From positions 1 to 27,519 of IMG/VR virus record IMGVR_UViG_3300037450_000082: a DNA stretch of 27,519 nucleotides, one strand, 5' to 3'. The stretch comes from a virus. The notes beneath the pieces were generated by a model, which was not told the origin of the DNA, ran no database searches, and saw only the letters and a list, made by a program, of their open reading frames with translations. Below, in pieces: positions 2,402 to 19,428 of this stretch. Both the position numbers and the translations under genes were made by a program. Numbering within the stretch: the stretch's first letter is position 1; each line of letters opens with the position of its first letter.

Positions 2402-2761
2402 ATGACGATCGAACTCTACGCGAAACCGATCCGGATCCGCGCGACGAAACACGTCCTCGAGGAGGCCTCCGGGTTCGAGTATGGGAGCTGGGAGGATCAC
2501 GGTAAGCCGGACGACGTCCTGGGCGACGCGCACCCGAAAGAAATTTTCGAGCGCCGTCAGTCGGTCGTCCTGATCGCGAGCCCGGCGGAGGCCGAGCGCG
2601 TGATCGACTCGCTCCTGAACTCCGCCGACATTGCACACGATCAGGCGACGTGTGCGGGTTGGCCCGAAGGCGGTCACCGTCGCCAGCTCGCGATCGCTTT
2701 CGAGACGGTCGTCGAGAAACTCCGCGCGATTATCGCCGCGCGGCCTGAAACGAGGAGGTAG
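2402..2761 (+). CDS. hypothetical protein, small alpha/beta
   Basis: One hundred and nineteen residues, ATG start with AGGAGG 7-8 bases upstream. An opening beta-like segment (TIELYAKPIRIRA) leads to an acidic stretch with Trp and His (YGSWEDHGKPDDVLGDAH), a strand (QSVVLIASPAEAERVID) and a C-terminal helix (LAIAFETVVEKLRAIIAARP). No motif that I can assign to an enzyme. The gene lies just after the palindrome at 2373-2390 and just before a ribbon-helix-helix-like protein, which may be its regulator; that is inference from position only. Confidence 0.6.
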   Translation: MTIELYAKPIRIRATKHVLEEASGFEYGSWEDHGKPDDVLGDAHPKEIFERRQSVVLIASPAEAERVIDSLLNSADIAHDQATCAGWPEGGHRRQLAIAFETVVEKLRAIIAARPETRR

Positions 2762-2765
2762 AGAC

Positions 2766-2798
2766 GTGGGAGATCGGACCTCGAGGCCGAGGTGGTGA
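2766..2798 (+). CDS. possible 10-residue leader ORF
   Basis: GTG at 2766 follows a good GAGGAGG motif (from 2752) at normal spacing. The frame reads ten residues ending Arg-Trp-Trp and stops with TGA at 2796-2798, which overlaps a GTG at 2795 in the frame of the next gene. It may serve only to deliver ribosomes to the downstream start. Confidence 0.25.
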   Translation: MGDRTSRPRW

Positions 2799-3010
2799 GC
2801 GGGCGAGGCGGGAAGAGACGCGGGGCCGGACGGCCGCCGCGGTCGCGTCTCGGACGGACGCGGGAGATATCAATCGCATTGCCGGAGCCGATCGTCGCCT
2901 GGATCGACCGGCGAGTCGAGAACTCCGAGGACCTGGGCGCCTCGCGCTCCCGCGCGATCGCCGAGATCCTAGAGAGGTCCTTTCGGGCCTCCGCGGATCG
3001 CGAGGGCTAG
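2792..3010 (+). CDS. ribbon-helix-helix-like DNA-binding protein
   Basis: Seventy-two residues. The N-terminus GGKRRGAGRPPRSRLGR is a basic arm of the GGxRxGAGRP type seen in several phage and bacterial DNA-binding proteins. Residues about 27-66 (ISIALPEPIVAWIDRRVEN, then SRSRAIAEILERSF) have the beta-strand, helix, turn, helix order of the MetJ/Arc ribbon-helix-helix fold, with an alternating-residue strand REISIAL. It is probably a dimeric repressor or antitoxin-like protein. No toxin-like neighbour is certain, though the gene at 2402 is adjacent. GTG at 2792 or 2795 can serve as start; 2795 overlaps the leader stop. Confidence 0.65.
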   Translation: MVSGRGGKRRGAGRPPRSRLGRTREISIALPEPIVAWIDRRVENSEDLGASRSRAIAEILERSFRASADREG

Positions 3011-3066
3011 GACCTGGGCGCGGGCCTGGACGCCCTCGGGGAGGATGAGGGCGCCCAGGTCCTAGC
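3006..3066. terminator. perfect 16-bp inverted repeat at convergent junction
   Basis: GCTAGGACCTGGGCGC at 3006-3021 is matched exactly by its reverse complement at 3051-3066, with a 29-base loop. The left arm contains the TAG stop of the plus-strand gene. A second perfect 7-bp stem with one central base (CGCCCGG-A-CCGGGCG, 3066-3080) follows. It lies between the rightward small genes and the end of the leftward late operon, so a bidirectional terminator is the simplest reading. There is no T-tract on either side. Confidence 0.55.
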
Positions 3067-3119
3067 GCCCGGACCGGGCGACGATCGCAGCTTACAAGCG
3101 ATCCTCGAGGCCCGGCCTC

Positions 3120-3212
3120 TCAGTCGAGCGCCTCGAGCGCGAACACGAGCCACCCAGCGGTCCCCAGGACGAGGAGCGCCAGTGCTCCGAGGATCCAGAG
3201 GATCGCCCTCAC
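3120..3212 (-). CDS. 30-residue single-pass membrane microprotein
   Basis: Reads MRAILWILGALALLVLGTAG then WLVFALEALD and TGA: almost the whole peptide is one membrane segment with a positive N-end and acidic C-end (N-in, C-out by the positive-inside rule). The GTG start overlaps the stop of the outer-spanin gene (GTGA at 3209-3212), which supports translation. It is the last gene of the late operon, next to the spanins. A small holin-associated or regulatory membrane peptide is possible; nothing identifies it. Confidence 0.5.
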   Translation of the reverse strand: MRAILWILGALALLVLGTAGWLVFALEALD

Positions 3213-3487
3213 GGCGCGATCCCGTCCTCCTCGACGTAGCCCTCGCCGCGGAGACCCATCACGTAATCGGCGAAGTCCTGGACGTCGTGGAGGTAGCGGA
3301 CGAGCGGATCGCCCTCCGCCGCCAGGAGGCCGGCGCGCCGGAAGGCGGCGAGCTGCGCGTCGACGGCCTCGCTCGGAACCGGCGGCCGGCGGCGGAGTTG
3401 GCACTCAGTCGCCGCCCTCGTCGCGCATCCTACGGCGCCGCTCGCGAGAACGATTCCAGCGATCCAGAAGGCCGCCCAGGTCCTCAC
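3209..3487 (-). CDS. outer-membrane lipoprotein spanin (Rz1-like)
   Basis: Ninety-two residues from the GTG at 3487. The N-terminus RTWAAFWIAGIVLASGAVGC is a lipoprotein signal ending in a plausible lipobox (AVG-Cys), then comes a Pro-containing stretch (RRRPPVP) typical of o-spanins, then a charged C-terminus. Its 5' 83 bases lie inside the 3' end of the i-spanin gene in another frame, the known overlapping Rz/Rz1 arrangement. In that system the lipoprotein binds the inner-membrane spanin across the periplasm and fuses the two membranes at the end of lysis. At about 75 mature residues it is larger than the smallest Rz1 proteins. An upstream in-frame ATG (3544) would hide the signal peptide. 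Confidence 0.7.
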   Translation of the reverse strand: MRTWAAFWIAGIVLASGAVGCATRAATECQLRRRPPVPSEAVDAQLAAFRRAGLLAAEGDPLVRYLHDVQDFADYVMGLRGEGYVEEDGIAP

Positions 3488-3671
3488 GCGGCGGGCCGTC
3501 GAGGTGGACGCTCGCGGCGCCCTCGAGTTCGTCGAGGTCCTCACGTCGTCGGATCTCCTTTTGATAGGCGCTCCGCGCGGCTCGATTTTGGCCGGAGAGA
3601 TACCACCCCCAGACGAACAGGCCGAGCGCGAGCGCGCCGAGGGCGATTTTCGCGATCAGGTCGGAAGGCAT
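3405..3671 (-). CDS. inner-membrane spanin (Rz-like)
   Basis: Eighty-eight residues, ATG start. One N-terminal membrane anchor (residues about 6-25, LIAKIALGALALGLFVWGWY) is followed by a strongly charged helical periplasmic domain (RAARSAYQKEIRRREDLDELE and RSRERRRRMRDEG), the i-spanin pattern of N-in, C-out with a coiled-coil ectodomain. It is shorter than lambda Rz (about 150 residues). Assignment rests on topology plus the overlapping lipoprotein gene; sequence identity to known spanins is not claimed. Confidence 0.65.
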   Translation of the reverse strand: MPSDLIAKIALGALALGLFVWGWYLSGQNRAARSAYQKEIRRREDLDELEGAASVHLDGPPREDLGGLLDRWNRSRERRRRMRDEGGD

Positions 3672-3672
3672 T

Positions 3673-3975
3673 CTAGGCGTTGGGATCCGGGCGGGCCTTC
3701 CCGACCGCCAGCGCGCCCAGGTTCACGACGCGGCCCAGAAACGCGACGATCGGCGAAAGGCTCGAGTTCGGCGTCCGGGTCGCGAGGATCGAGAGGATCG
3801 TCACGATCGACGAGAACACGGCCCAGACCTCGAGGCCGATCCCCTGCCAGTCGAGCGGCGCGGTCTCGACGACCGGGACGACCGGCTCGACCTGGGCGAA
3901 CACGGCGAGCGGGAAGAGGGCGGCCAGGAGGGCGAGGAGGAGCCATAGAAACACAGAGCGGGGTCGTAGCGTCAT
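3673..3975 (-). CDS. small membrane protein, holin or antiholin candidate
   Basis: One hundred residues, ATG start with AGGAG upstream. Residues 7-27 form a hydrophobic segment ending AVFA-Q, which scores by eye as a cleavable Sec signal or a SAR-type anchor. Residues about 46-65 (IGLEVWAVFSSIVTILSILA) are a clear membrane span, and 75-92 (PIVAFLGRVVNLGALAVG) a weaker one. The tail is Pro/Asp-rich. Its position between the muramidase and the spanins makes a lysis-timing role likely, but with three other candidates nearby I cannot say which is the holin. It starts one gene after, and on the same strand as, the 3987-4286 membrane protein. Confidence 0.55.
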   Translation of the reverse strand: MTLRPRSVFLWLLLALLAALFPLAVFAQVEPVVPVVETAPLDWQGIGLEVWAVFSSIVTILSILATRTPNSSLSPIVAFLGRVVNLGALAVGKARPDPNA

Positions 3976-3986
3976 GGATTCATCTC

Positions 3987-4286
3987 CTAGATGTAAAAGT
4001 GAGCGATTCCGTAGGCCGTAAGGGAACCCACGACGGAGTCGACGACGTCGCGGATCCGGTCGAGGAGATTCAGCTTGCGGCGTTTGATTCCCTGGACGAT
4101 CTCCCGGATCAGTTCCGGGAGCGCGCCGACGACGATAATCGTCCAGGGCGGAACGGCGGAGAGCCACCACACGAGAGCACTCCAGGCGAGCCCGGTCCCG
4201 AGTCCGATTCCCCAGTGACCGAGGAAATTCAAGGCCTGTTTCCCGATCGAAACCTCCGTGAATTTCTGGATCCCCCACGTCGTCAC
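3987..4286 (-). CDS. polytopic small membrane protein, holin candidate
   Basis: Ninety-nine residues from a GTG that overlaps the stop of the endolysin gene (GTGA at 4283-4286). Two to three hydrophobic segments: about residues 19-38 (FLGHWGIGLGTGLAWSALVW), 44-58 (VPPWTIIVVGALPEL) and 80-98 (VVDSVVGSLTAYGIAHFYI), with a strongly basic loop (GIKRRKLNLLDRIRD) between the last two. Size, topology and tight coupling to the muramidase fit a class I or II holin. The last part also recalls VanZ-like signatures (DxxxxxxG), so a non-lytic membrane protein is possible. Confidence 0.55.
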   Translation of the reverse strand: MTTWGIQKFTEVSIGKQALNFLGHWGIGLGTGLAWSALVWWLSAVPPWTIIVVGALPELIREIVQGIKRRKLNLLDRIRDVVDSVVGSLTAYGIAHFYI

Positions 4287-4810
4287 GGCGTCCTCCCCTG
4301 GGTCCGATTGATCGCGGCCGCCAGCTCGACGAACCGCACGGCCCACCCCTCGGCGAACTTGATCGAACTCGAGCCCGCCTGAACCCGGTTCATTTGCCGG
4401 CGCGTCCGGCGGACGACGATCCGCGTCGCGAGCTGGCGGTCGCCGTAGCGTTTCACGTAGAGGCGCGCGGCGAGGAGCGTCCGCGGCCCGATCACGCCGT
4501 CGGCCTTTGCGCGGACCTCGCGCTGAAAATGCTTTTTCGCGGCGCCGGCGTGAGCATTCGCGGCGAAGTCGAAGAGAGCCCAGGCCGCGAGCGGGGCGAC
4601 CTTCGCGACCCGGTCGCATCCGTGACGGCGCCAGTAGCGAACGCGGAGGATCTCGGCGGCGTCCTCCCACGTGAGCCGACGCACGTCGCCCAGGTCCGGG
4701 TTATACGCGGACGCGATCCCCCAGTTAGTCGCGCCGCCTGGGTCGGCGGCGTGATCGGAGTAACCGCCCTCCGCGCGTTTCCAGAACTCGAGAGCGCGCG
4801 CGAGGCTCAC
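4283..4810 (-). CDS. endolysin, GH108-family N-acetylmuramidase
   Basis: One hundred and seventy-five residues from the GTG at 4810, which overlaps the upstream stop; the longer frame further right is mostly shadow of that gene. Residues 14-32 read EGGYSDHAADPGGATNWGI, the diagnostic GH108 motif: Glu14 is the expected catalytic acid, and DPGG-x-T-x-x-GI is the family signature. Residues about 101-120 (AKADGVIGPRTLLA) match the short peptidoglycan-binding segment normally found at the C-terminal side of this family. Length is normal for the family (about 170-180). It cleaves the glycan between MurNAc and GlcNAc. There is no signal peptide, so it should need a holin for release. Confidence 0.85.
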   Translation of the reverse strand: MSLARALEFWKRAEGGYSDHAADPGGATNWGIASAYNPDLGDVRRLTWEDAAEILRVRYWRRHGCDRVAKVAPLAAWALFDFAANAHAGAAKKHFQREVRAKADGVIGPRTLLAARLYVKRYGDRQLATRIVVRRTRRQMNRVQAGSSSIKFAEGWAVRFVELAAAINRTQGRTP

Positions 4811-5175
4811 GGCTCGTGGTGCCTCGCCGGGGGCCTGGGTTTCTCGAGTTCGCCGCCCGGGGCGGCGCCCGCCTTGACGGCGAGTTCGTTTAGGATCCTC
4901 CGGTTTACAGCGTCGTTCACGAGGTCGGCCTCCGCCTTGCGGGAGAGATAATCGACGTCGTCCTCGATCCGCTCGACCTTCTCCGCGAGCTGCGCGACCT
5001 CGGACGCGTCCGCCTTCGCCGCAATATCGCCGGCAAGCGAGGTCCAGACGACGCCGCAAAGGATGCTAACGAGAACGAACGCGCCGACGGCGGCCCATTG
5101 CGGGATCGTCTTTCCGCTATTCGCGGCCTTGAGGCCCGCGCGAATCTCGTCGTCGGTGAGGGTTGGGTCAGACAT
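4807..5175 (-). CDS. single-span membrane protein with coiled coil, lysis-associated
   Basis: One hundred and twenty-two residues, ATG start. Residues 1-25 are cytosolic and polar, residues about 27-48 (WAAVGAFVLVSILCGVVWTSLA) are one membrane span, and residues 50-95 form an acidic/basic heptad-like helix (ASEVAQLAEKVERIEDDVDYLSRKAEADLV). The C-terminal end is Pro-rich. This is the layout of XhlA-like holin partners and of i-spanin-like proteins. It sits directly before the muramidase with a GTGA overlap. It may be a holin accessory, or a second spanin-like subunit; I cannot separate the two. Confidence 0.5.
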   Translation of the reverse strand: MSDPTLTDDEIRAGLKAANSGKTIPQWAAVGAFVLVSILCGVVWTSLAGDIAAKADASEVAQLAEKVERIEDDVDYLSRKAEADLVNDAVNRRILNELAVKAGAAPGGELEKPRPPARHHEP

Positions 5176-5187
5176 CTTCAGAGCCCC

Positions 5188-6111
5188 CTAGCTACAACAC
5201 GAATCAGTGAGGTCCGCGCATTCCGCGCACGTTCCTAGACCTAGACCCGTGCAGCACGGCCACGGTTGGCCCGAGCTAGTGCAAGCGTCGCTACCATAAT
5301 TACTCTCGCGCGTCGCGCCGGTCGCGTCGCCGTAATAACCGCACAGGACGATCTCCTCGATCTCGACTCGCGTCAGAACTTCATCGCGATACCAGCACTC
5401 ATGCGAAAGCCCGTTGTAATCCCCGCCCTTTGACTCGTTGGCCCCGATCACGAAATCGTCGGCGTTGCCGGTTGGATCGTTGCCTGAATCGCAACCCGCG
5501 TTGCAGGCGTCGCCGCCGTTGATATAGGCCTTGATTGTCTGAGTGCTACTACCGTCATAAGTCACCGCCCAGTGATACCACGAAGTAGAGCCACCAAATA
5601 TCGGAGTTTGCTCGATGCCGTCGTTAACCTCGGCGTGAAATGCGCCCGTCGCAAGCGTCTTGAACTCGTAGTTATCTTTGTCGTCCTTACTCATTACCAT
5701 GTCGTTAGCGATATTATCGGGGTTGATCCAGCAGCCCGCACTAAAATCGATCGCCTCGAACGCGTTCATCTCGCCGGAGCCGTCGCTCGCGTAGAAATAA
5801 TCATTGCTGTTTTGGTGATCTGCCCCTTGAGAGCCCGAGGCGCTACCAGCGGGGCCGCTCGCGTAGGCCCAGTTCCCCACCCACGTGAGGCTATCGTTAG
5901 ACGAGTCCGCGACACAATTGTCCGCTTGCGCCGTGCTCGACGAGCTATCGTCGAAAGTAACCCAGCACCCGAGCGCGGCGGTGTCCGAGCTGTAATCGTA
6001 ACCCGGCCCGGGCGGCGTCACGTCCGCGCGGCGAGGCCAAATCGGCGCGACCTGGAGGAGCGCGAGGAGCGCGAGCGCGAGCGTGAGACTACGGGACGTC
6101 TTGACAGTCAT
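5188..6111 (-). CDS. secreted LamG/jelly-roll-like protein with Cys-rich tail
   Basis: Three hundred and seven residues. Residues 5-22 (TSRSLTLALALLALLQVA) are a hydrophobic signal or anchor. Residues about 40-265 resemble the concanavalin/LamG-type sandwich found in phage adhesins: WVTFDDS, a GCWINPDN strand, SWYHWAVTYDGSSTQTIKAYINGG, and a late LSHECWYRDEVLTRVEIEEIVLCGYYG segment, the last typical of LamG_3 domains. The C-terminal 32 residues hold eight Cys, including CTSSGQPWPCCTGLGLGTC and a terminal CCS. It probably binds glycans. Whether it is a virion fibre component or an exported host-modifying protein is open. It overlaps the upstream gene by 23 bases. Confidence 0.65.
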   Translation of the reverse strand: MTVKTSRSLTLALALLALLQVAPIWPRRADVTPPGPGYDYSSDTAALGCWVTFDDSSSSTAQADNCVADSSNDSLTWVGNWAYASGPAGSASGSQGADHQNSNDYFYASDGSGEMNAFEAIDFSAGCWINPDNIANDMVMSKDDKDNYEFKTLATGAFHAEVNDGIEQTPIFGGSTSWYHWAVTYDGSSTQTIKAYINGGDACNAGCDSGNDPTGNADDFVIGANESKGGDYNGLSHECWYRDEVLTRVEIEEIVLCGYYGDATGATRESNYGSDACTSSGQPWPCCTGLGLGTCAECADLTDSCCS

Positions 6112-6499
6112 CGTCGCACGTCACGCCGGCGTCCGGAGGGTCGCACTCTTCGCCGAACTCCGTGTCCACGACGTCGTCCCCGCAAAAAGAGACGACCGCG
6201 TGAATGCCCCAAATTGAATCGAAGGTATCGAGCGCGTCGTCCACGTCGCTAGAAACCGTTGCTCTTGATTCGCGTCTAGTGACCTGTTTCTCGAAATCTC
6301 TCATTCCGCGCCGGAAGAACTCCGTCGCGCATTCGTTCGTGCTCCAGTTTGCAACGGTGACATTCAAGTGAACCCGGAGAATCTCGCACAGCTCGACGTT
6401 CCGCGTCGCGGCGGCGCTCGGAGCCCAGCAGTTATGTACGGCGGCCGACGCCGGCGGCGAACAGATCAAAAAGAGGATTAAAAACAAAGCCCGCATCAT
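6089..6499 (-). CDS. secreted small protein with Myxococcus-type Cys repeat
   Basis: One hundred and thirty-six residues, start ATG at 6499 overlapping the upstream TGA (ATGA); a second Met follows immediately. Residues 1-19 (MMRALFLILFLICSPPASA) are a textbook Sec signal with A-x-A cleavage. The middle is helical and charged. Near residue 105 the sequence reads CGDDVVDTEFGEECDPPDAG then VTCDDDC, closely matching the consensus of the Myxococcus cysteine-rich repeat (CGDGxxxxGEECDDGN...C...C). In cellular proteins that repeat occurs near the C-terminus of exported proteins. The N-terminal half also has two Cys near CWAP and CEI. Function unknown; an export or surface role is inferred. Confidence 0.65.
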   Translation of the reverse strand: MMRALFLILFLICSPPASAAVHNCWAPSAAATRNVELCEILRVHLNVTVANWSTNECATEFFRRGMRDFEKQVTRRESRATVSSDVDDALDTFDSIWGIHAVVSFCGDDVVDTEFGEECDPPDAGVTCDDDCQDVP

Positions 6500-8967
6500 T
6501 GCCTCACTATCTCGAAATTAATGCAAATGATATAATCATCGTCCGCCGTCGGCGTGTTGTCCACGTCGAAGCGGAGGACGTCGTACTGATCGAGCGTCGC
6601 CTCGGCTCCCGAAAGCCCGGTGTTCGTGTCGCCCGTCGTCGTATCCTCACACGTGACGGTTCCCGTTATGTCGGCCGGCGTCCCGTCGTCGTTCTCGAAC
6701 GAAAGATCCGCCTCGACTGTGCAGGTCCCGATGCAATGGCAGGCCGCGGACAAGAGCGTGACGGAGGAGTAAGCGGTCGGCATCCAAAACGGTTTATCTG
6801 TATCCGAATCCGAGAGCGCCTCTATCGTGTGACATTTCTGCATTCCCGGGACGAGGACCTGGACGTTAGGAGCGCCGCCGTCGTCCTCCCAGACTAGTTG
6901 AGAGGCGGAGATCCCGTTATCCGACGTGTCGATCGCGATCTCGCCGTCCGCGTCGACCGTCGGATTCGCCGCGTTCGGAACCTCGAGACTCGCGCCGCCG
7001 AAATCGTGAGCGCCCGTGTAGGTATCGCCGGTGGCGAGGGCGAGGTTCGCTGTATCGGCGATCCCGTGGACTGAGGTCGTAACGGCGGCATGAGTCGCGA
7101 CAATCGAATCGATTTCCGTCGAGGCATCGGTACAGGTAGCGCTGGCATCACCGCTCGCATCGACACCCTTCGCGTAGGAACCGGCGGCGCAATCAGCCCC
7201 GTCACCGTGACCCGCGACGTAGCTCGAGTGATTTGTTCCCGGATCGGCGGCCGGGGAGAAGATATCATGCCCGATGATCTCAACCGAATGATTCGCGACG
7301 CCGGAGACGACGGTCGAAATCCCAGTCCCGCCAGCGAATGTAATCAATTCCCCGTCGTCGACCTGTCGGATCGGACTCGCGTCGTCGTCGGTTATATCAA
7401 AAGACGAAAACGTTCCGCTCGGCGTTGCGATACAGCTCGGAGCGCCGGCCGCGTCGTATTCGACGATCCGGTTCGCCGCGCCGGTGCAGGCGATCAGCTC
7501 GTCGAGCCCGACCGTATCGTCGTCGAGCGCGCAGTCCTCGGCGCCCGCGCCGCACGCCCAGTCGCCGAAATCATCGGTCGCCATATCGGGATCGGTGACC
7601 GTCGTTAGGAGCGCGGACGTGTCTGTAATCCCGTGGACCGAGGTCGTTACGGCCGCGTGGGTCGTAATGTCGGCGTCCGACGCCCAGGTCGCGTCGTCGA
7701 TTCCGAGCACGTCGGCCGCGAGGTCGAAGTCCGCGGCCGCGGCCGACACGAGCCGGAGGTCGAAGCTACTCTTCGGCGTCGAGTGTGTGAGAGCCAGGGC
7801 GCCCTCCGGACTCGAGATCGTATTCGCCTCGCCGCCTCCGCCGGTCGGCGTGAGGATACAGGTCGGAGCGCCGGCCGCGTCGTATTCGACGATCCGGTTC
7901 GCCGCGCCGGTGCAGGCGATCAGCTCGTCGAGCCCGACCGTGTCGTCGTCGAGCGAGAGGCCGCCGCCGATCGTCCCGGTCACGTCGCCGGCGGCGACGG
8001 TCTCCGCCTGGACAAACGCCGTCGTCGCGGCGAGCGTCGAGTCGTCGTTAACGGACGGACTCGCGTCCGCGGTAAAACTCGCCGCCTCGAGGCCCATCGT
8101 AAAATCAAGCGTGTCGACGAGAGTTAGCGAGGAGAACTCGACCGTGTTCGTCGAGTGTGTAAGGCGGAGCCGCTCGACTCCGTCGAAAAAGAACTCGAAA
8201 TAATCCGCCGGCGTCCCCTCGACCGTGAGGCTCGAGTTCGAGTGTGCGATCGTCGTCTGAAAGGTAGAGAGCGAATCGCACACGTCGCAGGCATCGTTTA
8301 GGTCGGCGTCATAGTCGACCTTGAACATCATTCCAGTAACGAGCGTTGAACATTGCTTGACCTCGCGCGAGCTATCAGACTGGAAGCACAGATACTCGTC
8401 CGTGATCCCGCCGCCGCCGAACGGTTGCGTGACGACCTTCGAGAAATCCGTGATCCCGTGGACGTCCGACTCGTCGGACGCGTGCGTAGAGAGGTCCCCA
8501 TCGGACGCCCATTTCGCGTCATCGATCACGAGCAAGTCGAAGGCCGCGATATCAAAATCCGCGGCCGCGGCCGACACGAGCCGGAGGTCGACTCCGGCCT
8601 TCGGCGTCGAGTGCGTCAGAGCGAGGTCGCCCCCTGGGCTCGAGATCGTATTCGCCTCGCCGGCTCCGGCGAGCGGTTCGTCCAGGACCCAAGCGTCCGC
8701 CTCATCGCTCCAACGGCATACGTTTTCATCTGTACCGCCGCCCGTGTCGCCGGCGTTCCCGCACTCGGCGCTCGTGTCGCCGTCTATAACGACGATCCGG
8801 ACGCCGAGGAGTTCCGCCGAACACGTTCCGGCCTGGACCTCGGCGACGGTACAGGCGACCGGCGCGCGGATCCCGGGCGACGAGGGCGAGGACGTCACCG
8901 GCTGAGCGAGCGCCGGCGCGGCGATCACGAGGGCGGCGAGGGCGGCGAGCTGCGCGCGTAGGCTCAC
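6496..8967 (-). CDS. large fibre-like repetitive protein with N-terminal signal peptide
   Basis: Eight hundred and twenty-three residues, GTG start with AGGAGG. Residues 1-22 (MSLRAQLAALAALVIAAPALAQ) are a clear Sec signal peptide with ALA-Q cleavage, very unusual for a tail fibre. The body is Asp/Thr/Ala-rich and repetitive: two long modules containing GEANTISSP..LALTHSTPK..DLRLVSAAAADFD, then ASDxDxxTHA and VHGITD, plus two copies of a DDDTVGLDELIACTGAANR module. THAxxxxxVHGI motifs are common in phage fibre shafts. The C-terminal ~110 residues contain paired Cys (ACHCIGTC, VTCEDT, YIICINFE) and look like a beta-rich head domain. A receptor-binding fibre or exported adhesin are the alternatives. 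Confidence 0.65.
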   Translation of the reverse strand: MSLRAQLAALAALVIAAPALAQPVTSSPSSPGIRAPVACTVAEVQAGTCSAELLGVRIVVIDGDTSAECGNAGDTGGGTDENVCRWSDEADAWVLDEPLAGAGEANTISSPGGDLALTHSTPKAGVDLRLVSAAAADFDIAAFDLLVIDDAKWASDGDLSTHASDESDVHGITDFSKVVTQPFGGGGITDEYLCFQSDSSREVKQCSTLVTGMMFKVDYDADLNDACDVCDSLSTFQTTIAHSNSSLTVEGTPADYFEFFFDGVERLRLTHSTNTVEFSSLTLVDTLDFTMGLEAASFTADASPSVNDDSTLAATTAFVQAETVAAGDVTGTIGGGLSLDDDTVGLDELIACTGAANRIVEYDAAGAPTCILTPTGGGGEANTISSPEGALALTHSTPKSSFDLRLVSAAAADFDLAADVLGIDDATWASDADITTHAAVTTSVHGITDTSALLTTVTDPDMATDDFGDWACGAGAEDCALDDDTVGLDELIACTGAANRIVEYDAAGAPSCIATPSGTFSSFDITDDDASPIRQVDDGELITFAGGTGISTVVSGVANHSVEIIGHDIFSPAADPGTNHSSYVAGHGDGADCAAGSYAKGVDASGDASATCTDASTEIDSIVATHAAVTTSVHGIADTANLALATGDTYTGAHDFGGASLEVPNAANPTVDADGEIAIDTSDNGISASQLVWEDDGGAPNVQVLVPGMQKCHTIEALSDSDTDKPFWMPTAYSSVTLLSAACHCIGTCTVEADLSFENDDGTPADITGTVTCEDTTTGDTNTGLSGAEATLDQYDVLRFDVDNTPTADDDYIICINFEIVRQ
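7429..7529. repeat. 101-bp in-frame direct repeat, copy 1 (copy 2 at 7855-7955)
   Basis: By eye the 7429-7529 and 7855-7955 segments differ at two positions only. They are 426 bases (142 codons) apart and encode the repeated DDDTVGLDELIACTGAANRIVEYDAAGAP part of the fibre-like protein. Near-identity at the DNA level implies recent duplication or gene conversion. Confidence 0.75.
7728..7835. repeat. ~108-bp diverged in-frame direct repeat, copy 1 (copy 2 at 8556-8663)
   Basis: These two segments, 828 bases (276 codons) apart, share CGCGGCCGCGGCCGACACGA and CTCGAGATCGTATTCGCCTC blocks with differences between them. They encode the GEANTISSP...LVSAAAADFD module. This pair is more diverged than the 101-bp pair, suggesting an older duplication. 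Confidence 0.7.
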
Positions 8968-8978
8968 GTTCGGACCTC

Positions 8979-9320
8979 CTAGACGCGACGGCGCGCGGCG
9001 ACCCAGAGACCGATCACACCCTGGGGATAGGTCACCTCGACCCGTCGAAACGTGCTGTTATAGCGGGAGATCGAGAACCGCCCGAACGTGATCCGCTTCC
9101 CGGCGCCGACCGTTGCGAGCTGGGAGGTGTGGACGTTGAGGTCGCCGTAAGGGCACGCCCTTTGCTCGGTCACGTGGACCTCGAGGTCCGCGCCGCTCTG
9201 GTTGTAGGCGTTCAGGATCGCGTCGCCGCGCGTGTTATCGAACTCGTCGCCGCCGGCCTCCGCCGCGACCTCGTTCCCCTCGAGCGGGTCGGAGGCCTCG
9301 AGGAGGACTAGGATCGCCAT
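8979..9320 (-). CDS. small tail-region protein, unknown
   Basis: One hundred and thirteen residues; its ATG overlaps the stop of the upstream fibre gene by one base (TAATG). The sequence is beta-rich: an N-terminal strand (AILVLLEA), then short strands through DLEVHVTEQ and DLNVHTSQLATVGAGKRITFG, ending in RRVEVTYPQGVIGLWVAARRR. It has the look of a small beta-sandwich or beta-barrel subunit of a fibre or its cap. No family recognised. Being between two fibre-like genes suggests a virion role or a fibre-assembly function. Confidence 0.55.
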   Translation of the reverse strand: MAILVLLEASDPLEGNEVAAEAGGDEFDNTRGDAILNAYNQSGADLEVHVTEQRACPYGDLNVHTSQLATVGAGKRITFGRFSISRYNSTFRRVEVTYPQGVIGLWVAARRRV

Positions 9321-10312
9321 TAAGCGACCTCCGGCGCGTAGTCGTCAACCCACCCGAGGACCTCGATAATTTGAACGCCGTTCGCCGTCTTGTACTTGAT
9401 CCTCGAGGCGACCGTCTGATCGTCGTTCGGGACGAGCCCGGTGTCGTCGCCGTAGTGGACGTCGCCGCCGCCGCCGCCGCCGCAATGGAGGATCGCGTCG
9501 GAGTCGGCGTTCCCGTCTCCGGGCGCGATCCAAATCTCCTCGGAGCCGTTCGTCGTCTCGCATTCCGCGTGCAGGTAAAACGCCGACGCCGTCCGCGGCG
9601 CGTTGATCGTTAGCGCCGTGTAGGCGGCGTTATTCGGCGCCTCCGTGAAACTTGAATCACGATCGAACAGGACGATCAGGCCGCCGCGGCACGCGTTGAA
9701 GTTGGCGACGTCCTCGCCGGCATCATTCCAGAACGAGCCGACACACCTCCACGTCGTATTCGTCGGATGGTATCCGACCTTATCTGCCGAGCCGCGAGGC
9801 TCCGGCCCGGTCGCGGAAAGGTGCTGGACGAGCGTCCCGGACGAGTTCTCGAGATACAGATAGTAGGGTGTGTCGGTTGCCTCGCTCCCCGTGTCGAGGT
9901 CGGAGCCGCCGACGCCGGAGTCGCCCAGCTCCCACACGATATTCGCAGACTGGGAGAGGACGACATTATCGATCTCGACCGTAATCAGGCCGCCGAGTCC
10001 GGGCGTGAATCGAACTTGATTGACCGCGACCCACTCGAAATTCGCGCGGAGGAGCCCAGTCGCCGCCGTCCCGAGGATCGCGTTCATCGCGTCGATTAGA
10101 TCACTATCTCCGCCCGGCCCTTTCGTCCCGGTGATTCCGCCGGCGACGAGGACGGCCTCGAGGTTCGCCTGGATATCGTTCAGCCAGTCGGCTTCGATCA
10201 CGGTCGCCGGGACTCCGCCTCCCGGGTCGCCGTTGTGCCACCACTTTTCGGTCCCGGCGGCGGTGATCGTCGGACGAACCGCGTTCGCCGTGTCGTTATC
10301 GATTCGGATCAC
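9320..10312 (-). CDS. tail fibre protein
   Basis: Three hundred and thirty residues, GTG start with AGGAGG. The N-terminal ~70 residues include GGGVPATVIEADWLNDIQANLEAVL, matching the DPATxVEADWLNxxQEE-type attachment motif common to phage tail fibre N-termini. The remainder is Gly/Asn/Asp/Thr-rich with beta character. Near residue 285 is a run of six Gly encoded by a GCC/GGC triplet repeat (around 9464-9483). The position directly after the gp48-type baseplate gene is where Mu-like phages place the fibre gene. It should attach to the baseplate and take part in host recognition. No chaperone of the Mu U type is evident nearby. Confidence 0.7.
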   Translation of the reverse strand: MIRIDNDTANAVRPTITAAGTEKWWHNGDPGGGVPATVIEADWLNDIQANLEAVLVAGGITGTKGPGGDSDLIDAMNAILGTAATGLLRANFEWVAVNQVRFTPGLGGLITVEIDNVVLSQSANIVWELGDSGVGGSDLDTGSEATDTPYYLYLENSSGTLVQHLSATGPEPRGSADKVGYHPTNTTWRCVGSFWNDAGEDVANFNACRGGLIVLFDRDSSFTEAPNNAAYTALTINAPRTASAFYLHAECETTNGSEEIWIAPGDGNADSDAILHCGGGGGGDVHYGDDTGLVPNDDQTVASRIKYKTANGVQIIEVLGWVDDYAPEVA

Positions 10313-10321
10313 GGGAGCCTC

Positions 10322-10906
10322 CTACGTATAGGAAAAGATCAGGAAAACGTGGGCTTGTTGCATCCCCTGAATCGTGCACTCGAGGAGTTCGTTTCCCCAC
10401 CACCTGAGCGGATCGCCGGCGACGGCCTCGCCCGCTTTCGCCTCGAATATCGTCGTTTCCGGCGCGTTGACCTGGAGGACGAACCACCACTCCCAGCCGT
10501 TGATCGGGAGGCCGCACGGATCGCCGCAGCGTAGCGGCGTGAACTCGTCGACGGTGATCGTATATCCGATCGCGAGCGCCGCGGCTTCGTAATCTTCGAG
10601 GCGTTGGAGTCCGAAGTCCGTCAATTTTCGGACGAGTACGTCGCGGCGCGCCTCGAGGGTTCCGGCGGCGCCGGAACATTCGTCGGGGAGGCCGGCGTCG
10701 TTCTCCCATTCGACGATCAGCTCCTCCGTCGTGTCCGCGTAGGCCTCGACGTCGAGGAGCGAGAGCCCGCGGCCGTGGACGCGCGCGAGTTCGTCGGCCC
10801 AGGCATAGAGGAGCTGGGAGAGGTTCGTCCCGATCTCCGTCGCCCAGGCCCGCCCAGGCGGGAGGAGTCGGAGGAGTTGATCGCGATAGTCCTCGGCTAG
10901 AGCCAC
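10322..10906 (-). CDS. baseplate protein, Mu gp48-like (DUF2313)
   Basis: One hundred and ninety-four residues, GTG start overlapping the upstream stop by 10 bases. The N-terminal part (YRDQLLRLLPPGRAWATEIGTNLSQLLYAWADELARV) is characteristic of the YmfQ/gp48 family, in which LLPxGxAW is highly conserved. The central part has paired Cys (LRCGDPCGLPI), and the C-terminus is aromatic and beta-like. In Mu this protein connects the baseplate wedge to the fibre. Its position after gp47-like baseplate J and before the fibre gene matches Mu order exactly. Confidence 0.85.
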   Translation of the reverse strand: MALAEDYRDQLLRLLPPGRAWATEIGTNLSQLLYAWADELARVHGRGLSLLDVEAYADTTEELIVEWENDAGLPDECSGAAGTLEARRDVLVRKLTDFGLQRLEDYEAAALAIGYTITVDEFTPLRCGDPCGLPINGWEWWFVLQVNAPETTIFEAKAGEAVAGDPLRWWGNELLECTIQGMQQAHVFLIFSYT

Positions 10907-11982
10907 GTGATCGACCCAAGCGTCCGGATTTGATTCGTCGTCGATGTGACGTCAGCGGACGGGACGCTGACCGTATTATCCGTTTCGCCGGCGGCCGCGG
11001 AGACCGCCTCGCGGATCTGAGAGAGATAGATCGTCCCGCCCGGCGTCCCCTCGCGGAGGTGGAGGTCCTCGAGTTCGGCCTGGACGGCGGCGCGGATCTC
11101 CGCGGTATCCGGCGTGATCGCGATCGAGTAGGCCTGAGCGAGCGCCGTCGGCGCGACGACGAATAGCTCGACCGTTGCGGGCTTCCCGACCGTCCGCCCG
11201 GTCTCCGGGTCGACGTGTTCGAGGAGGTAGGCCTCGACGGCGGCGACGTCGGCGGAGTCCGGGATCAGGCCGTCCGGATCGTCGTCACGAACGAATGTTA
11301 CGGAGACCGTCCCGAAACCGAGCGCGCGTTCCGTCGCCCAGGCGCGCGTAACGCCCGGGACCTCGAGCGCCCAGGCCTCATAGTCGTTAGTGTGACCGCC
11401 TCGAGGCGGCGTCCGGATCCGGCGGAGCGTCCGCGCGCGGAGCGCCGCGTCGCTCTCGTCGTCGGCGCCGTCGGCCATTCCGCCGGCGGAGACGGTCCCG
11501 GTCGCATCGACGCCGGCGATCGGAGACGAGAACGTGAGGACGGTTCCCGCGTCGGCGTTGCCGTCCTCGCCCGCCTCGACCGCGGTCCCGGCGACGGTGA
11601 TCGTTCCGCCGGAGATCACGCCCTCCTCCGTCGTCACATACTCGACGGCGTCGCCGCGGAGTAACTCCGTCCCGATCGGGATCACAATCGCGTCGCCACC
11701 GGTGATCGTAATCCCGCCGACCGCGAACTGGGCCGGCGTCCGATCCGTTCCCCAGAAGGCGGAGTGCCGCGTGAGGTGTTCGGAGTCGGCGCTATCGACG
11801 AATAGCTGGCGGGAGAGGTAGTCGAGGAACCCGTAGAGGCCGTGAACGGCGCCGGCGGATACCTGGGCGAGGACCCCCAGGACGGAGCGCCGGAGGAGCG
11901 CGTCCGCGCCCGGGAGGCGCGCCGATAGGTCGGCCTTCGCGCGTTGGATCAATTCCGTAAGCGTAGGCCGCGCGAACGCCAT
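10897..11982 (-). CDS. baseplate J-like protein, Mu gp47-like
   Basis: Three hundred and sixty-one residues from the ATG at 11982, chosen because GGGAGG lies just upstream and the sequence MAFARPTLTELIQRAKADLSARLPG is the usual start of the family; a longer frame to 12102 overlaps the gp46-like gene. It contains the family pattern LLRRSVLGVLAQVSAGAVHGLYGFLDYLSRQLFVDSAD and ALRARTLRRIRTPPRGGHTNDYEAWALEVPGVTRAWA, both highly conserved in baseplate J proteins. It forms the wedge of the contractile-tail baseplate with the gp46- and gp48-like neighbours. Confidence 0.9.
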   Translation of the reverse strand: MAFARPTLTELIQRAKADLSARLPGADALLRRSVLGVLAQVSAGAVHGLYGFLDYLSRQLFVDSADSEHLTRHSAFWGTDRTPAQFAVGGITITGGDAIVIPIGTELLRGDAVEYVTTEEGVISGGTITVAGTAVEAGEDGNADAGTVLTFSSPIAGVDATGTVSAGGMADGADDESDAALRARTLRRIRTPPRGGHTNDYEAWALEVPGVTRAWATERALGFGTVSVTFVRDDDPDGLIPDSADVAAVEAYLLEHVDPETGRTVGKPATVELFVVAPTALAQAYSIAITPDTAEIRAAVQAELEDLHLREGTPGGTIYLSQIREAVSAAAGETDNTVSVPSADVTSTTNQIRTLGSITWL

Positions 11983-11983
11983 A

Positions 11984-12433
11984 TCAGACCGCCTCCCAGA
12001 CGTAGCTAAATCGGAAATCAATCCTCGTTCCGCGCGGCTCGTAAATTTCGACCTGGAGGGCGGCGAGGTCGTCGTCGAGGATCTCGCCGACGGCGTCGAC
12101 ACGAGTCGCGATCCCGTCCTCGACGAGCCACGCCAGCGCGTCGCGCGCGCGCTCCTCGAGCTGCGCGCGGGTCCGTTCGATATTCAGCTCCCGGTCGAGG
12201 AGCCAGAGAAGCGACCCGGTTTGATCGCCGGCGAGCTGCGCGAACGAGTCCCCCCAGAAACCACGGCGATCCGTCGACTCCGCCGGGAGCCGAACGTCTC
12301 GAGGCGCGCGAGCGTCAGAGAACAGCGAAACGACGACGGCCGTTAGGAGGCCGTCGTCGGCCTGGAGATCCGCGGCCTCGAGGGCGAGGTCGTAGGTTCC
12401 GTCCGTCGAATCGAACACGAGCGCGGCGTCCAT
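11984..12433 (-). CDS. baseplate wedge protein, Mu gp46-like
   Basis: One hundred and forty-nine residues, ATG start. Contains DRRGFWGDSFAQLAGDQTGSLLWLLDRE, the region most conserved in the gp46/W family (RRGWWGD...GSrLWLL), then an acidic/helical part and a C-terminal strand (IDFRFSYVWEAV). Homologous to the T4 gp25/P2 W group with lysozyme-like fold but no catalytic role. It lies directly upstream of gp47 with a gap of one base. Confidence 0.85.
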   Translation of the reverse strand: MDAALVFDSTDGTYDLALEAADLQADDGLLTAVVVSLFSDARAPRDVRLPAESTDRRGFWGDSFAQLAGDQTGSLLWLLDRELNIERTRAQLEERARDALAWLVEDGIATRVDAVGEILDDDLAALQVEIYEPRGTRIDFRFSYVWEAV

Positions 12434-12561
12434 CCCAGGCGGTCCCCTTTCTCTGGATCACTAGGTCCTAGCGGTCGGACCTCCTCGAGAACTCTCGACC
12501 TGGGCGATCCTCGAGCGCCTCTTTTCTGGGCACTCCAAGCGAAACCCGCGCAGCTCGCGAT
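12434..12561. other. 128-base gap between gp45- and gp46-like genes
   Basis: The only sizeable spacer in the tail operon. It has the odd palindrome CTAGGTCCTAG (12461-12471), which with its next bases shares AGGTCCTAGCG with the 3' arm of the inverted repeat at 3006-3066. A 21-codon open frame on the minus strand (stop at 12468) lacks a good ribosome site. I see no terminator or promoter that I can defend. Confidence 0.35.
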
Positions 12562-17952: not shown

Positions 17953-19428
17953 TTAAGAGTTGAGGCGGAACTGGAGTTTCACGCCCAGTTTCCGTAGCTG
18001 ATTCGCGAGGTCGGGCGGGAGGAGGATATTCAGTTGATCCGGATCCGTTTCGTCCCGCTCGACGACGAGGTCCGCCTTGAACTGAGAGACGTTCTCGACG
18101 TAGCCCGCGACCTCCCAGTCCCGGAAGATTGCGACCGCCTCCGCCGTCGCCCTCGAGGGCGTGATCGTCGCCTGACCGGGCGCGACGTTCGTCTCGTCGC
18201 CGACGAGTTTCGCGCGCGGGAATTTCGTCGCGAACCGCGTCCGGAACGTCGACCGGAGAAGCGAGAGCGTCAACAACGTATTGACGTTCAGGTAAGCGAT
18301 ATCCGGGAGCGCGAGCGCGTTCGTTTGCGAGTTCGTAATCATGCGCTGGATCCGGAGCGTATCGCCCTCGTCCGTGTAGAGGGTCGCTATTCCGTTGTGG
18401 AGAAGGGTGTCCTGTTCGCTCAGCGTAAACCGATCCTCCCGCCTCGAGGCGAGGATCCCGACGAGCGCGAGGGTTTGGAACGGACGCGCCGGATCGATAT
18501 TCCCCTTTTGTGCGACCTGGGCGGCGGCCGCGGCCGCGACGTCGTTCGCGGAGTTCGGGATCCCGGGCTCGACGCCGACGACCGTCACGTGAGGCGAGTT
18601 CCGGAGCCCGCCGGCCGTTACGAGATTGGTCACCGTCTCAGCGACGCCGCCGAACGCGTGCCCGTCGTTCTGGCGGATCGGTCCCCAGCGGTCGGCGAGT
18701 TCGGTCTCGAGAGCCGTATAGTCCGCGGCCTCGAGCTGCGGGAACACGAGGATGTGATATCGATCCTCGCCGATCGCCGTGATCACGTCCGATAGCGTGA
18801 TCGACCCGACGCCCGGAACGGAGTTGGCGACCGCGATCGCGAGATCCGACGGGAGCGCCTCGCCTACGTTGTGATTAAGGACGACCGGGCTCGCGTCCGC
18901 GTCGCGTCCGGCGGCCTTCGCCTCGAGCGTGACGACGCCGACGGCGCTCGTCGCCGAGAACGGGGAATCCTGTTCGGCCTCGACCGCCGCGGCGATCGCG
19001 GACGCGACCTCCGTCACCGATGCGCTATCGGCAACGGCCGCCGTAATCCGGAGCCCGCCCAGGTAGAGGTAGACCGTCCCCGCCGTGATCGCCGCGCCGG
19101 TACAGGTCAGCGTGTACTCCGAGGGCGTTCCGGCGCTCGTGTCAATCGAGATTTGCCAGGTCTCCGTGAACCGGTTGTTCGCACGCCACGCGCGCGCCAT
19201 GTTCGCGAGCGGCGACCCGGGGCCGTGATCGTTCCGCGCCTGATCGTCCGAGATCGAGAGCGTCGGAGTGAGCGCGGCGACGACCGCGCCGGTGTCGTTC
19301 CTCGGCGCGATCAGGAGAGCGCGATAGGGTTCGACCTGGAGACCCTGGACGGCCTGGGAGGAGTCGAACTCGACAAATACTCCGGGGGTCCGGAGCGTTA
19401 CGGGAATCTGATCGAAAGAGATCGTCAC
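17953..19428 (-). CDS. contractile tail sheath protein, Mu gpL-like
   Basis: Four hundred and ninety-one residues, ATG start. The opening ISFDQIPVTLRTPGVFVEFDSSQA is the highly conserved N-terminus of Mu-like sheaths, and the central part holds DRYHILVFPQLEAADYTALETELADRWGPIRQNDGHAF and the C-terminal part LALPDIAYLNVNTLLTLSLLRSTFRTRFATKFPRAKLV, both standard. Length is typical (about 480-500). It surrounds the tube and contracts on infection. Confidence 0.95.
   Translation of the reverse strand: MTISFDQIPVTLRTPGVFVEFDSSQAVQGLQVEPYRALLIAPRNDTGAVVAALTPTLSISDDQARNDHGPGSPLANMARAWRANNRFTETWQISIDTSAGTPSEYTLTCTGAAITAGTVYLYLGGLRITAAVADSASVTEVASAIAAAVEAEQDSPFSATSAVGVVTLEAKAAGRDADASPVVLNHNVGEALPSDLAIAVANSVPGVGSITLSDVITAIGEDRYHILVFPQLEAADYTALETELADRWGPIRQNDGHAFGGVAETVTNLVTAGGLRNSPHVTVVGVEPGIPNSANDVAAAAAAQVAQKGNIDPARPFQTLALVGILASRREDRFTLSEQDTLLHNGIATLYTDEGDTLRIQRMITNSQTNALALPDIAYLNVNTLLTLSLLRSTFRTRFATKFPRAKLVGDETNVAPGQATITPSRATAEAVAIFRDWEVAGYVENVSQFKADLVVERDETDPDQLNILLPPDLANQLRKLGVKLQFRLNS

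What the first reader, a model, noticed from the sequence alone, without database searches (positions are those of the whole stretch)
5188..8967. Three consecutive Sec-signal proteins in a phage late operon
The 823-residue fibre-like protein, the Myxo-type Cys protein and the LamG-like protein all begin with signal-like hydrophobic N-termini (two are textbook with A-x-A cleavage), and all carry Cys clusters that would form disulphides outside the cytoplasm. Virion fibres normally assemble in the cytoplasm without signals. The cassette may instead encode an exported, surface-displayed or envelope-modifying system made late in infection or from a prophage, with translationally coupled genes.
Basis: partly seen in the sequence, partly recalled or inferred. 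Interest (0 to 1): 0.7.

Follow-up and report, generated by a model that had tools for sequence, protein, structure and literature searches.

The report
Secreted adhesin cassette in temperate phage
A temperate bacterial virus carries, next to its ordinary tail-fibre and lysis genes, three extra sticky-protein genes of which two have textbook export signals (the third has an export-like N-terminus without a clear cleavage site), and six relatives carry export-tagged fibres or spikes of unrelated sequence in the same place, so this looks like a recurring way for phages to put adhesins outside the cytoplasm rather than a quirk of one genome.

Summary
P0003 (823 aa) and P0002 (136 aa) have textbook Sec/SPase I signals; P0001 (307 aa, LamG) has an equally hydrophobic N-terminus but no cleavage site. 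The three hold 44 Cys in 1,266 aa against 43 in 5,920 for the structural proteins. The phage is temperate, with a Mu/SfV-type contractile tail. An ordinary baseplate fibre (P0006) lies upstream of the cassette; holin-like, endolysin and spanin-like genes lie downstream.

In 242 related phage or prophage loci, six others carry signal-bearing fibre, spike or lectin genes in this slot (L022, L024, L130, L144, L275, L277), unrelated in sequence to the window's. Three have bodies that match virion-adhesin families. All six keep an ordinary fibre gene. L144 repeats the window's gene order. P0003's six-Cys C-terminal domain recurs as a separate signal-bearing protein on another viral contig.

Most likely these are extra adhesins, exported late to the periplasm, that act on the envelope or its glycans (receptor masking or trimming) and are released at lysis. 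A virion part matured in the periplasm, or a lysogen surface adhesin, is not excluded. Export is inferred from sequence. The signal scan was a home-made rule set, not SignalP; nothing was tested in cells.

The parts
6496..8967 (-). P0003: 823-aa fibre-like protein with cleavable Sec signal, internal repeats and a six-Cys C-terminal domain (residues ~712-815)
   Evidence: signal scan; DNA repeats; C-terminal domain homologue with its own Sec signal in L289:8896-9321, BLASTP E=3e-10, six Cys matched, five in aligned columns and one offset
6089..6499 (-). P0002: 136-aa Cys-rich protein with cleavable Sec signal; no database homologue
5188..6111 (-). P0001: 307-aa LamG/ConA-like lectin domain protein, 14 Cys, hydrophobic N-terminus without clear SPase I site
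   Evidence: PF13385 E=1.7e-12
9320..10312 (-). P0006: ordinary baseplate-type tail fibre, no signal
   Evidence: phrog_1833 tail fiber E=5e-9 at the N-terminus; homologues in relatives
8979..9320 (-). P0005: 113-aa protein between fibre and cassette, no signal, unknown
4807..5175 (-). P0004: one TM plus coiled coil, lysis-module type; similar-looking genes follow the signal-bearing adhesins in L144, L022 and L275
   Evidence: no family call above cut-off
4283..4810 (-). GH108 endolysin with peptidoglycan-binding domain
   Evidence: PF05838 E=2.6e-18; phrog_315; start
3987..4286 (-). 99-aa membrane protein, holin candidate
3673..3975 (-). 100-aa protein with signal-like N-terminus plus one TM, holin candidate
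3405..3671 (-). i-spanin-like protein (TM plus coiled coil) with an o-spanin-like lipoprotein ORF overlapping it in another frame (3209-3544)
   Evidence: pattern only, no family hit sought
10322..10906 (-). Mu gp48-like baseplate protein
   Evidence: PF10076 E=3e-20
10897..12102 (-). baseplate J-like (Mu gp47)
   Evidence: phrog_6 E=2.5e-72
17953..19428 (-). contractile tail sheath
   Evidence: 44.7% to Bordetella phage PBb001 sheath

Best explanation
The three genes form an accessory cassette of late-made adhesins exported to the periplasm of a diderm host, additional to the phage's ordinary baseplate fibre. P0003 and P0002 are translated with the late operon, cross the inner membrane by Sec, lose their signals and form disulphides in the periplasm; P0001 follows them or stays anchored. 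There they bind envelope components or surface glycans under construction, and when endolysin and spanins open the cell they are released with the virions. Their most likely use is to mask or trim receptors on the host and its debris, blocking superinfection and loss of progeny. Signals, Cys enrichment, gene order and recurrence are shown; export, disulphides, timing and function are inferred.
For: Two textbook signals, rare by chance. Strong Cys enrichment. Spanin-type genes imply a diderm host. The ordinary fibre P0006 is kept here and a P0006-like fibre in all six other loci with signal-bearing adhesins, so the exported proteins are additional to it (weak in L130, E=0.001). Signal plus Shine-Dalgarno in 29 of 873 ORFs downstream of gp48 against 2 of 1,395 upstream structural ORFs (the downstream hits include lysis proteins and host genes). 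Virion-adhesin bodies carry the signals: L024 phrog_4636 tail spike E=6e-15; L275 tail spike E=1e-24 and phrog_32881; L144 LamG-type phrog_10356 virion structural protein E=3e-14. The L144 order is the same as the window's: gp48, fibre, small protein, signal-fibre, small protein with weak signal, signal-LamG, TM/coiled coil, endolysin-like gene. P0003's six-Cys domain is a separate signal-bearing protein in viral contig L289/L291, and another homologue lies beside tandem signal-bearing fibre-like genes in an Omnitrophota genome. Precedent for mechanism: T5 Llp, an exported protein encoded beside the receptor-binding protein, blocks the receptor from the periplasm, and added purified receptor-binding protein blocks infection (PMC9586334).
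Against: No direct evidence of export, timing or masking. P0001 lacks a cleavage site. Sec alone does not take proteins across the outer membrane. Cys richness is not general (L144 signal-fibre 0 Cys, L024 3 Cys), so disulphide need cannot be the common reason for export. Close homologues of the three whole proteins were not found outside this phage, so conservation of the signal could be looked at only for the P0003 C-terminal domain. The nearest relatives by gp47 manage without the cassette.
Confidence: 0.42

Rival explanations
1. Accessory virion adhesins matured in the periplasm: the proteins are exported to fold and form disulphides, and join the baseplate or fibre when virions pass through the opened envelope at lysis.
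For: Slot is the classical fibre slot; bodies of L024, L275 and the L144 LamG protein match virion spike or structural families; genes are next to lysis genes.
Against: No recognisable baseplate-attachment domain was detected at the mature N-termini, whereas the retained fibre has one; assembly after lysis would be diluted.
Confidence: 0.25
2. Lysogenic conversion: the prophage expresses the cassette so that the host displays adhesins useful to the lysogen.
For: Temperate phage (integrase); P0003 segments resemble exported-type proteins of Omnitrophota genomes; pneumococcal prophage PblB has a reported signal peptide and mediates adhesion (PMC4508584).
Against: Genes are tightly packed in the late operon and overlap each other; no terminator-like site and only one weak minus-strand promoter-like site, at chance level, were found in 2500-12500.
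Confidence: 0.18
3. The N-termini are not used for export: they are buried attachment helices of virion proteins or chance Ala/Leu-rich sequence in a GC-rich genome.
For: Genome is 66% GC; the predictor is home-made; P0001 lacks a cleavage site.
Against: Only 3 of 140 window ORFs and 2 of 1,395 upstream structural ORFs of relatives score as signals; full n-h-c signals recur in the other six loci and in the separate homologue of the P0003 tip domain.
Confidence: 0.1

Closest known systems
T5 Llp and Cor-type superinfection-exclusion lipoproteins
   Same: Small exported phage protein with a disulphide, encoded directly beside the receptor-binding protein, acting from the periplasm (PMC9586334)
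   Different: Llp is a lipoprotein with no adhesin body; here two larger adhesin-like proteins plus a small one, no lipobox
Lambda Lom (outer-membrane protein gene inside the tail-fibre region)
   Same: Exported host-envelope gene in the fibre region (own knowledge, not tested here)
   Different: Outer-membrane protein, not fibre or lectin; different phage type
Streptococcal prophage adhesins PblA/PblB
   Same: Phage tail proteins acting as adhesins of the host; a signal peptide was reported for pneumococcal PblB (PMC4508584)
   Different: Gram-positive host; PblB itself has a predicted phage-tail domain; no three-gene cassette
Sec-signal endolysins such as fOg44 Lys44
   Same: Late phage protein sent through host Sec (PMC6116005)
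   Different: Lysis enzyme, not adhesin
SfV/Mu-type contractile phages; Bordetella phage PBb001
   Same: Head, tail and baseplate genes in the same order; SfV carries envelope-modifying gtr genes just after its fibre genes
   Different: No signal-adhesin cassette found in PBb001 or SfV

Membership tests
Mu/SfV-type contractile-tail phage | sheath, gp45-gp48-type baseplate and fibre genes in order | tested here: met
Temperate phage | integrase | tested here: met
   PF00589 E=1.5e-29 in the near-identical contig G001 (L008:2452-3432)
Laminin_G_3 (PF13385), P0001 | score above the Pfam gathering cut-off | tested here: met
   48.2 bits vs 27.6
Myxococcus-type disulphide repeat, P0002 | match to Pfam or NCBIfam model | tested here: not met
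   no hit; resemblance by eye only
Sec/SPase I secreted proteins (P0003, P0002) | positive n-region, hydrophobic core, A-x-A cleavage site | tested here: met
   rule-based scan; SignalP not available
Sec/SPase I secreted protein (P0001) | A-x-A type cleavage site | tested here: not met
   hydrophobic core present, no site
Virion tail fibre or spike (P0003) | match to a known fibre family | tested here: not met
   no Pfam, PHROG or PDB hit; fibre-like by position and repeats only
T5 Llp/Cor superinfection-exclusion lipoprotein (P0002) | lipobox | tested here: not met
   signal ends in A-S-A before A-V; the only early Cys lies inside the signal without a lipobox
T5 Llp/Cor superinfection-exclusion lipoprotein (P0002) | blocks the receptor | not testable with these tools
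   needs cells

The most novel reading that the evidence does not exclude
A recurring class of Sec-exported phage adhesin cassettes: phages fit export signals to fibre, spike and lectin modules and make them in addition to the virion fibre, as soluble or periplasmic receptor-binding proteins with their own function in infection.
Probability: 0.4. Interest if true: 0.75.

Novelty: new variant of a known kind. Interest (0 to 1): 0.62.

Why it matters
Tailed phages are thought to build fibres and spikes in the cytoplasm. Signal-bearing fibre and spike genes in the fibre slot, kept beside an ordinary fibre in seven phages without shared cassette sequence, point to a repeated use of adhesins outside the cytoplasm. 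If so, calling such genes virion parts by adhesin homology would be wrong, and there is a testable new layer of receptor blocking, glycan trimming or periplasmic maturation.

Tried and rejected
Close relatives of the three proteins were sought in IMG/VR, genome contigs and annotated phages: only the same phage in a second contig (genome contigs with P0003 only, phages with P0003 and P0001 only). Profile searches of Pfam, PHROGs, NCBIfam and PADLOC gave nothing credible for P0002 and P0003, nor did PDB for P0003. Single-sequence AlphaFold models were too poor to use (pLDDT 54 for the P0003 C-terminus, 33 for P0001). Homologues of L130 and L144 signal-bearing proteins in their own phylum or class were too distant to test conservation of the signal. 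Searches with the P0003 N- and C-terminal domains and the L144 fibre in annotated phages found nothing, and a repeat-motif scan of the fetched loci was uninformative. Disulphide need as a general cause of export was rejected because some signal-bearing adhesins have few or no Cys. Several signal hits near prophages look like host genes and were not counted (L104, L132, L138 and others). Literature searches found no description of signal peptides on tail fibres or spikes of tailed phages of diderm hosts; the library holds open-access papers only.

Full report
What was checked. The window is a 27,519-base virus record, and contig IMGVR_UViG_3300037540_000125 (36,887 bases) is the same phage at 99.96-99.99%. 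The rest of that contig adds a tyrosine integrase and a replication protein O, so the phage is temperate. Head, tail and baseplate genes are of the Mu/SfV type: terminase, portal, fused protease and major head protein, sheath, tape measure, gp44-gp48-type baseplate, in the order of Bordetella phage PBb001.

The cassette. After gp48 comes an ordinary fibre P0006 (N-terminal match to phrog_1833), the small P0005, then P0003, P0002 and P0001, then a TM/coiled-coil protein P0004, a GH108 endolysin, two holin candidates and an overlapping pair that looks like i- and o-spanin. P0003 and P0002 have textbook Sec signals by a rule-based scan. Its hits include membrane anchors and lipoproteins. P0001 has the hydrophobic core but no cleavage site. 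The three proteins carry 44 Cys in 1,266 residues against 43 in 5,920 (p = 1.8e-12). Start codons overlap and no terminator-like site was found across 2500-12500.

Recurrence. Downstream of gp48 in 164 related loci the scan gives 29 signal-bearing ORFs of 873, against 2 of 1,395 in the upstream structural genes. With a laxer scan (no ribosome-binding site asked, lower cut-off) the contrast shrinks to 54 of 668 against 45 of 1,156, because tape-measure and other hydrophobic segments enter; the strict figures are the ones relied on. With further fetches 242 loci were surveyed: 50 signal-bearing ORFs of 1,783 downstream, 19 of 717 at 200 aa or more. Reading the large hits, six loci other than the window carry phage adhesin-like genes with signals in the slot: L022, L024, L130, L144, L275 and L277. 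The rest look like lysis proteins or host genes. The bodies are adhesins by homology in L024 (phrog_4636 tail spike), L275 (tail spikes of other phages; phrog_32881) and the L144 LamG-type protein (phrog_10356 virion structural protein); for L022, L130 and L277 the adhesin reading rests on position and sequence character (L130 has a weak phrog_32881 match). L144, a prophage in a Vampirovibrionales genome, has the same gene order as the window: gp48, P0006-like fibre, small protein, signal-fibre, small protein with a weak signal (score 3.38), signal-LamG, TM/coiled coil, endolysin-like gene. All six keep a P0006-like fibre gene (weak in L130, downstream of the cassette in L277). The nearest relatives by gp47 that were read lack the cassette, so it behaves as an exchangeable module. 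Homologues of the L024 and L275 bodies in other phages have no signal.

Independent support from P0003 itself. Its C-terminal domain (712-815) has a homologue of 141 aa on an Omnitrophota genome contig that IMG/VR classes as a virus and that carries a gene read as a GpA-type terminase by eye. That homologue has its own Sec signal; BLASTP E = 3e-10, and its six Cys match those of P0003, five in aligned columns and one offset. A third member lies in another Omnitrophota genome beside tandem signal-bearing fibre-like genes; its own short ORF shows no signal. The 590-700 stretch of P0003 matches repeat regions of large proteins, one with a signal, in a further Omnitrophota genome. The link to export thus reaches beyond this phage, but rests on few sequences.

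Interpretation. The retained fibre argues that the exported proteins are additional rather than the main receptor-binding parts. The spanin-type pair argues for a diderm host, so Sec would deliver them to the periplasm until lysis. T5 provides the mechanistic model: Llp, encoded beside the receptor-binding protein, jams the receptor from the periplasm, and purified receptor-binding protein itself blocks infection (PMC9586334). Receptor masking or glycan trimming is therefore put first (0.42), periplasm-matured virion adhesins second (0.25), lysogen surface adhesins third (0.18), and non-use of the signals last (0.10). None of these has been tested in cells; the host is unknown.

Noticed in passing
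L008:1898-2455 (-), adjacent to the integrase, just outside the window end: 185-aa protein with N-terminal TM, FN3-like middle and a C-terminus that resembles a PEP-CTERM sorting signal (LPEPPRALQLGAGLIALVAMGFGPRGSFRTRVL); not found by Pfam or NCBIfam models.
   Followed up: partly
window 3673-3975 (-): Holin candidate with a signal-like N-terminus followed by one TM; similar signal-plus-TM genes lie in L022:6697-7149 and, by eye, within L275:17304-18170.
   Followed up: partly
window 7415-7955 and 8447-8668: Direct repeats inside the P0003 gene (115 bases 95%, about 222 bases 80%); the second assembly of this phage (G001) begins and ends in this repeat region, so the number of repeats may be uncertain.
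   Followed up: no
L294:10202-13055 (-): Tandem genes for fibre-like proteins with Sec signals (NVGIGS.SPRSKLDV shafts) in an Omnitrophota genome.
   Followed up: no
L012:11337-13070: Diversity-generating retroelement beside the fibre slot of Chromohalobacter phage YPCBV-1.
   Followed up: no
L022:10193-12019: Cys-rich 608-aa fibre-like protein without signal in a phage that also has a signal-bearing fibre.
   Followed up: no
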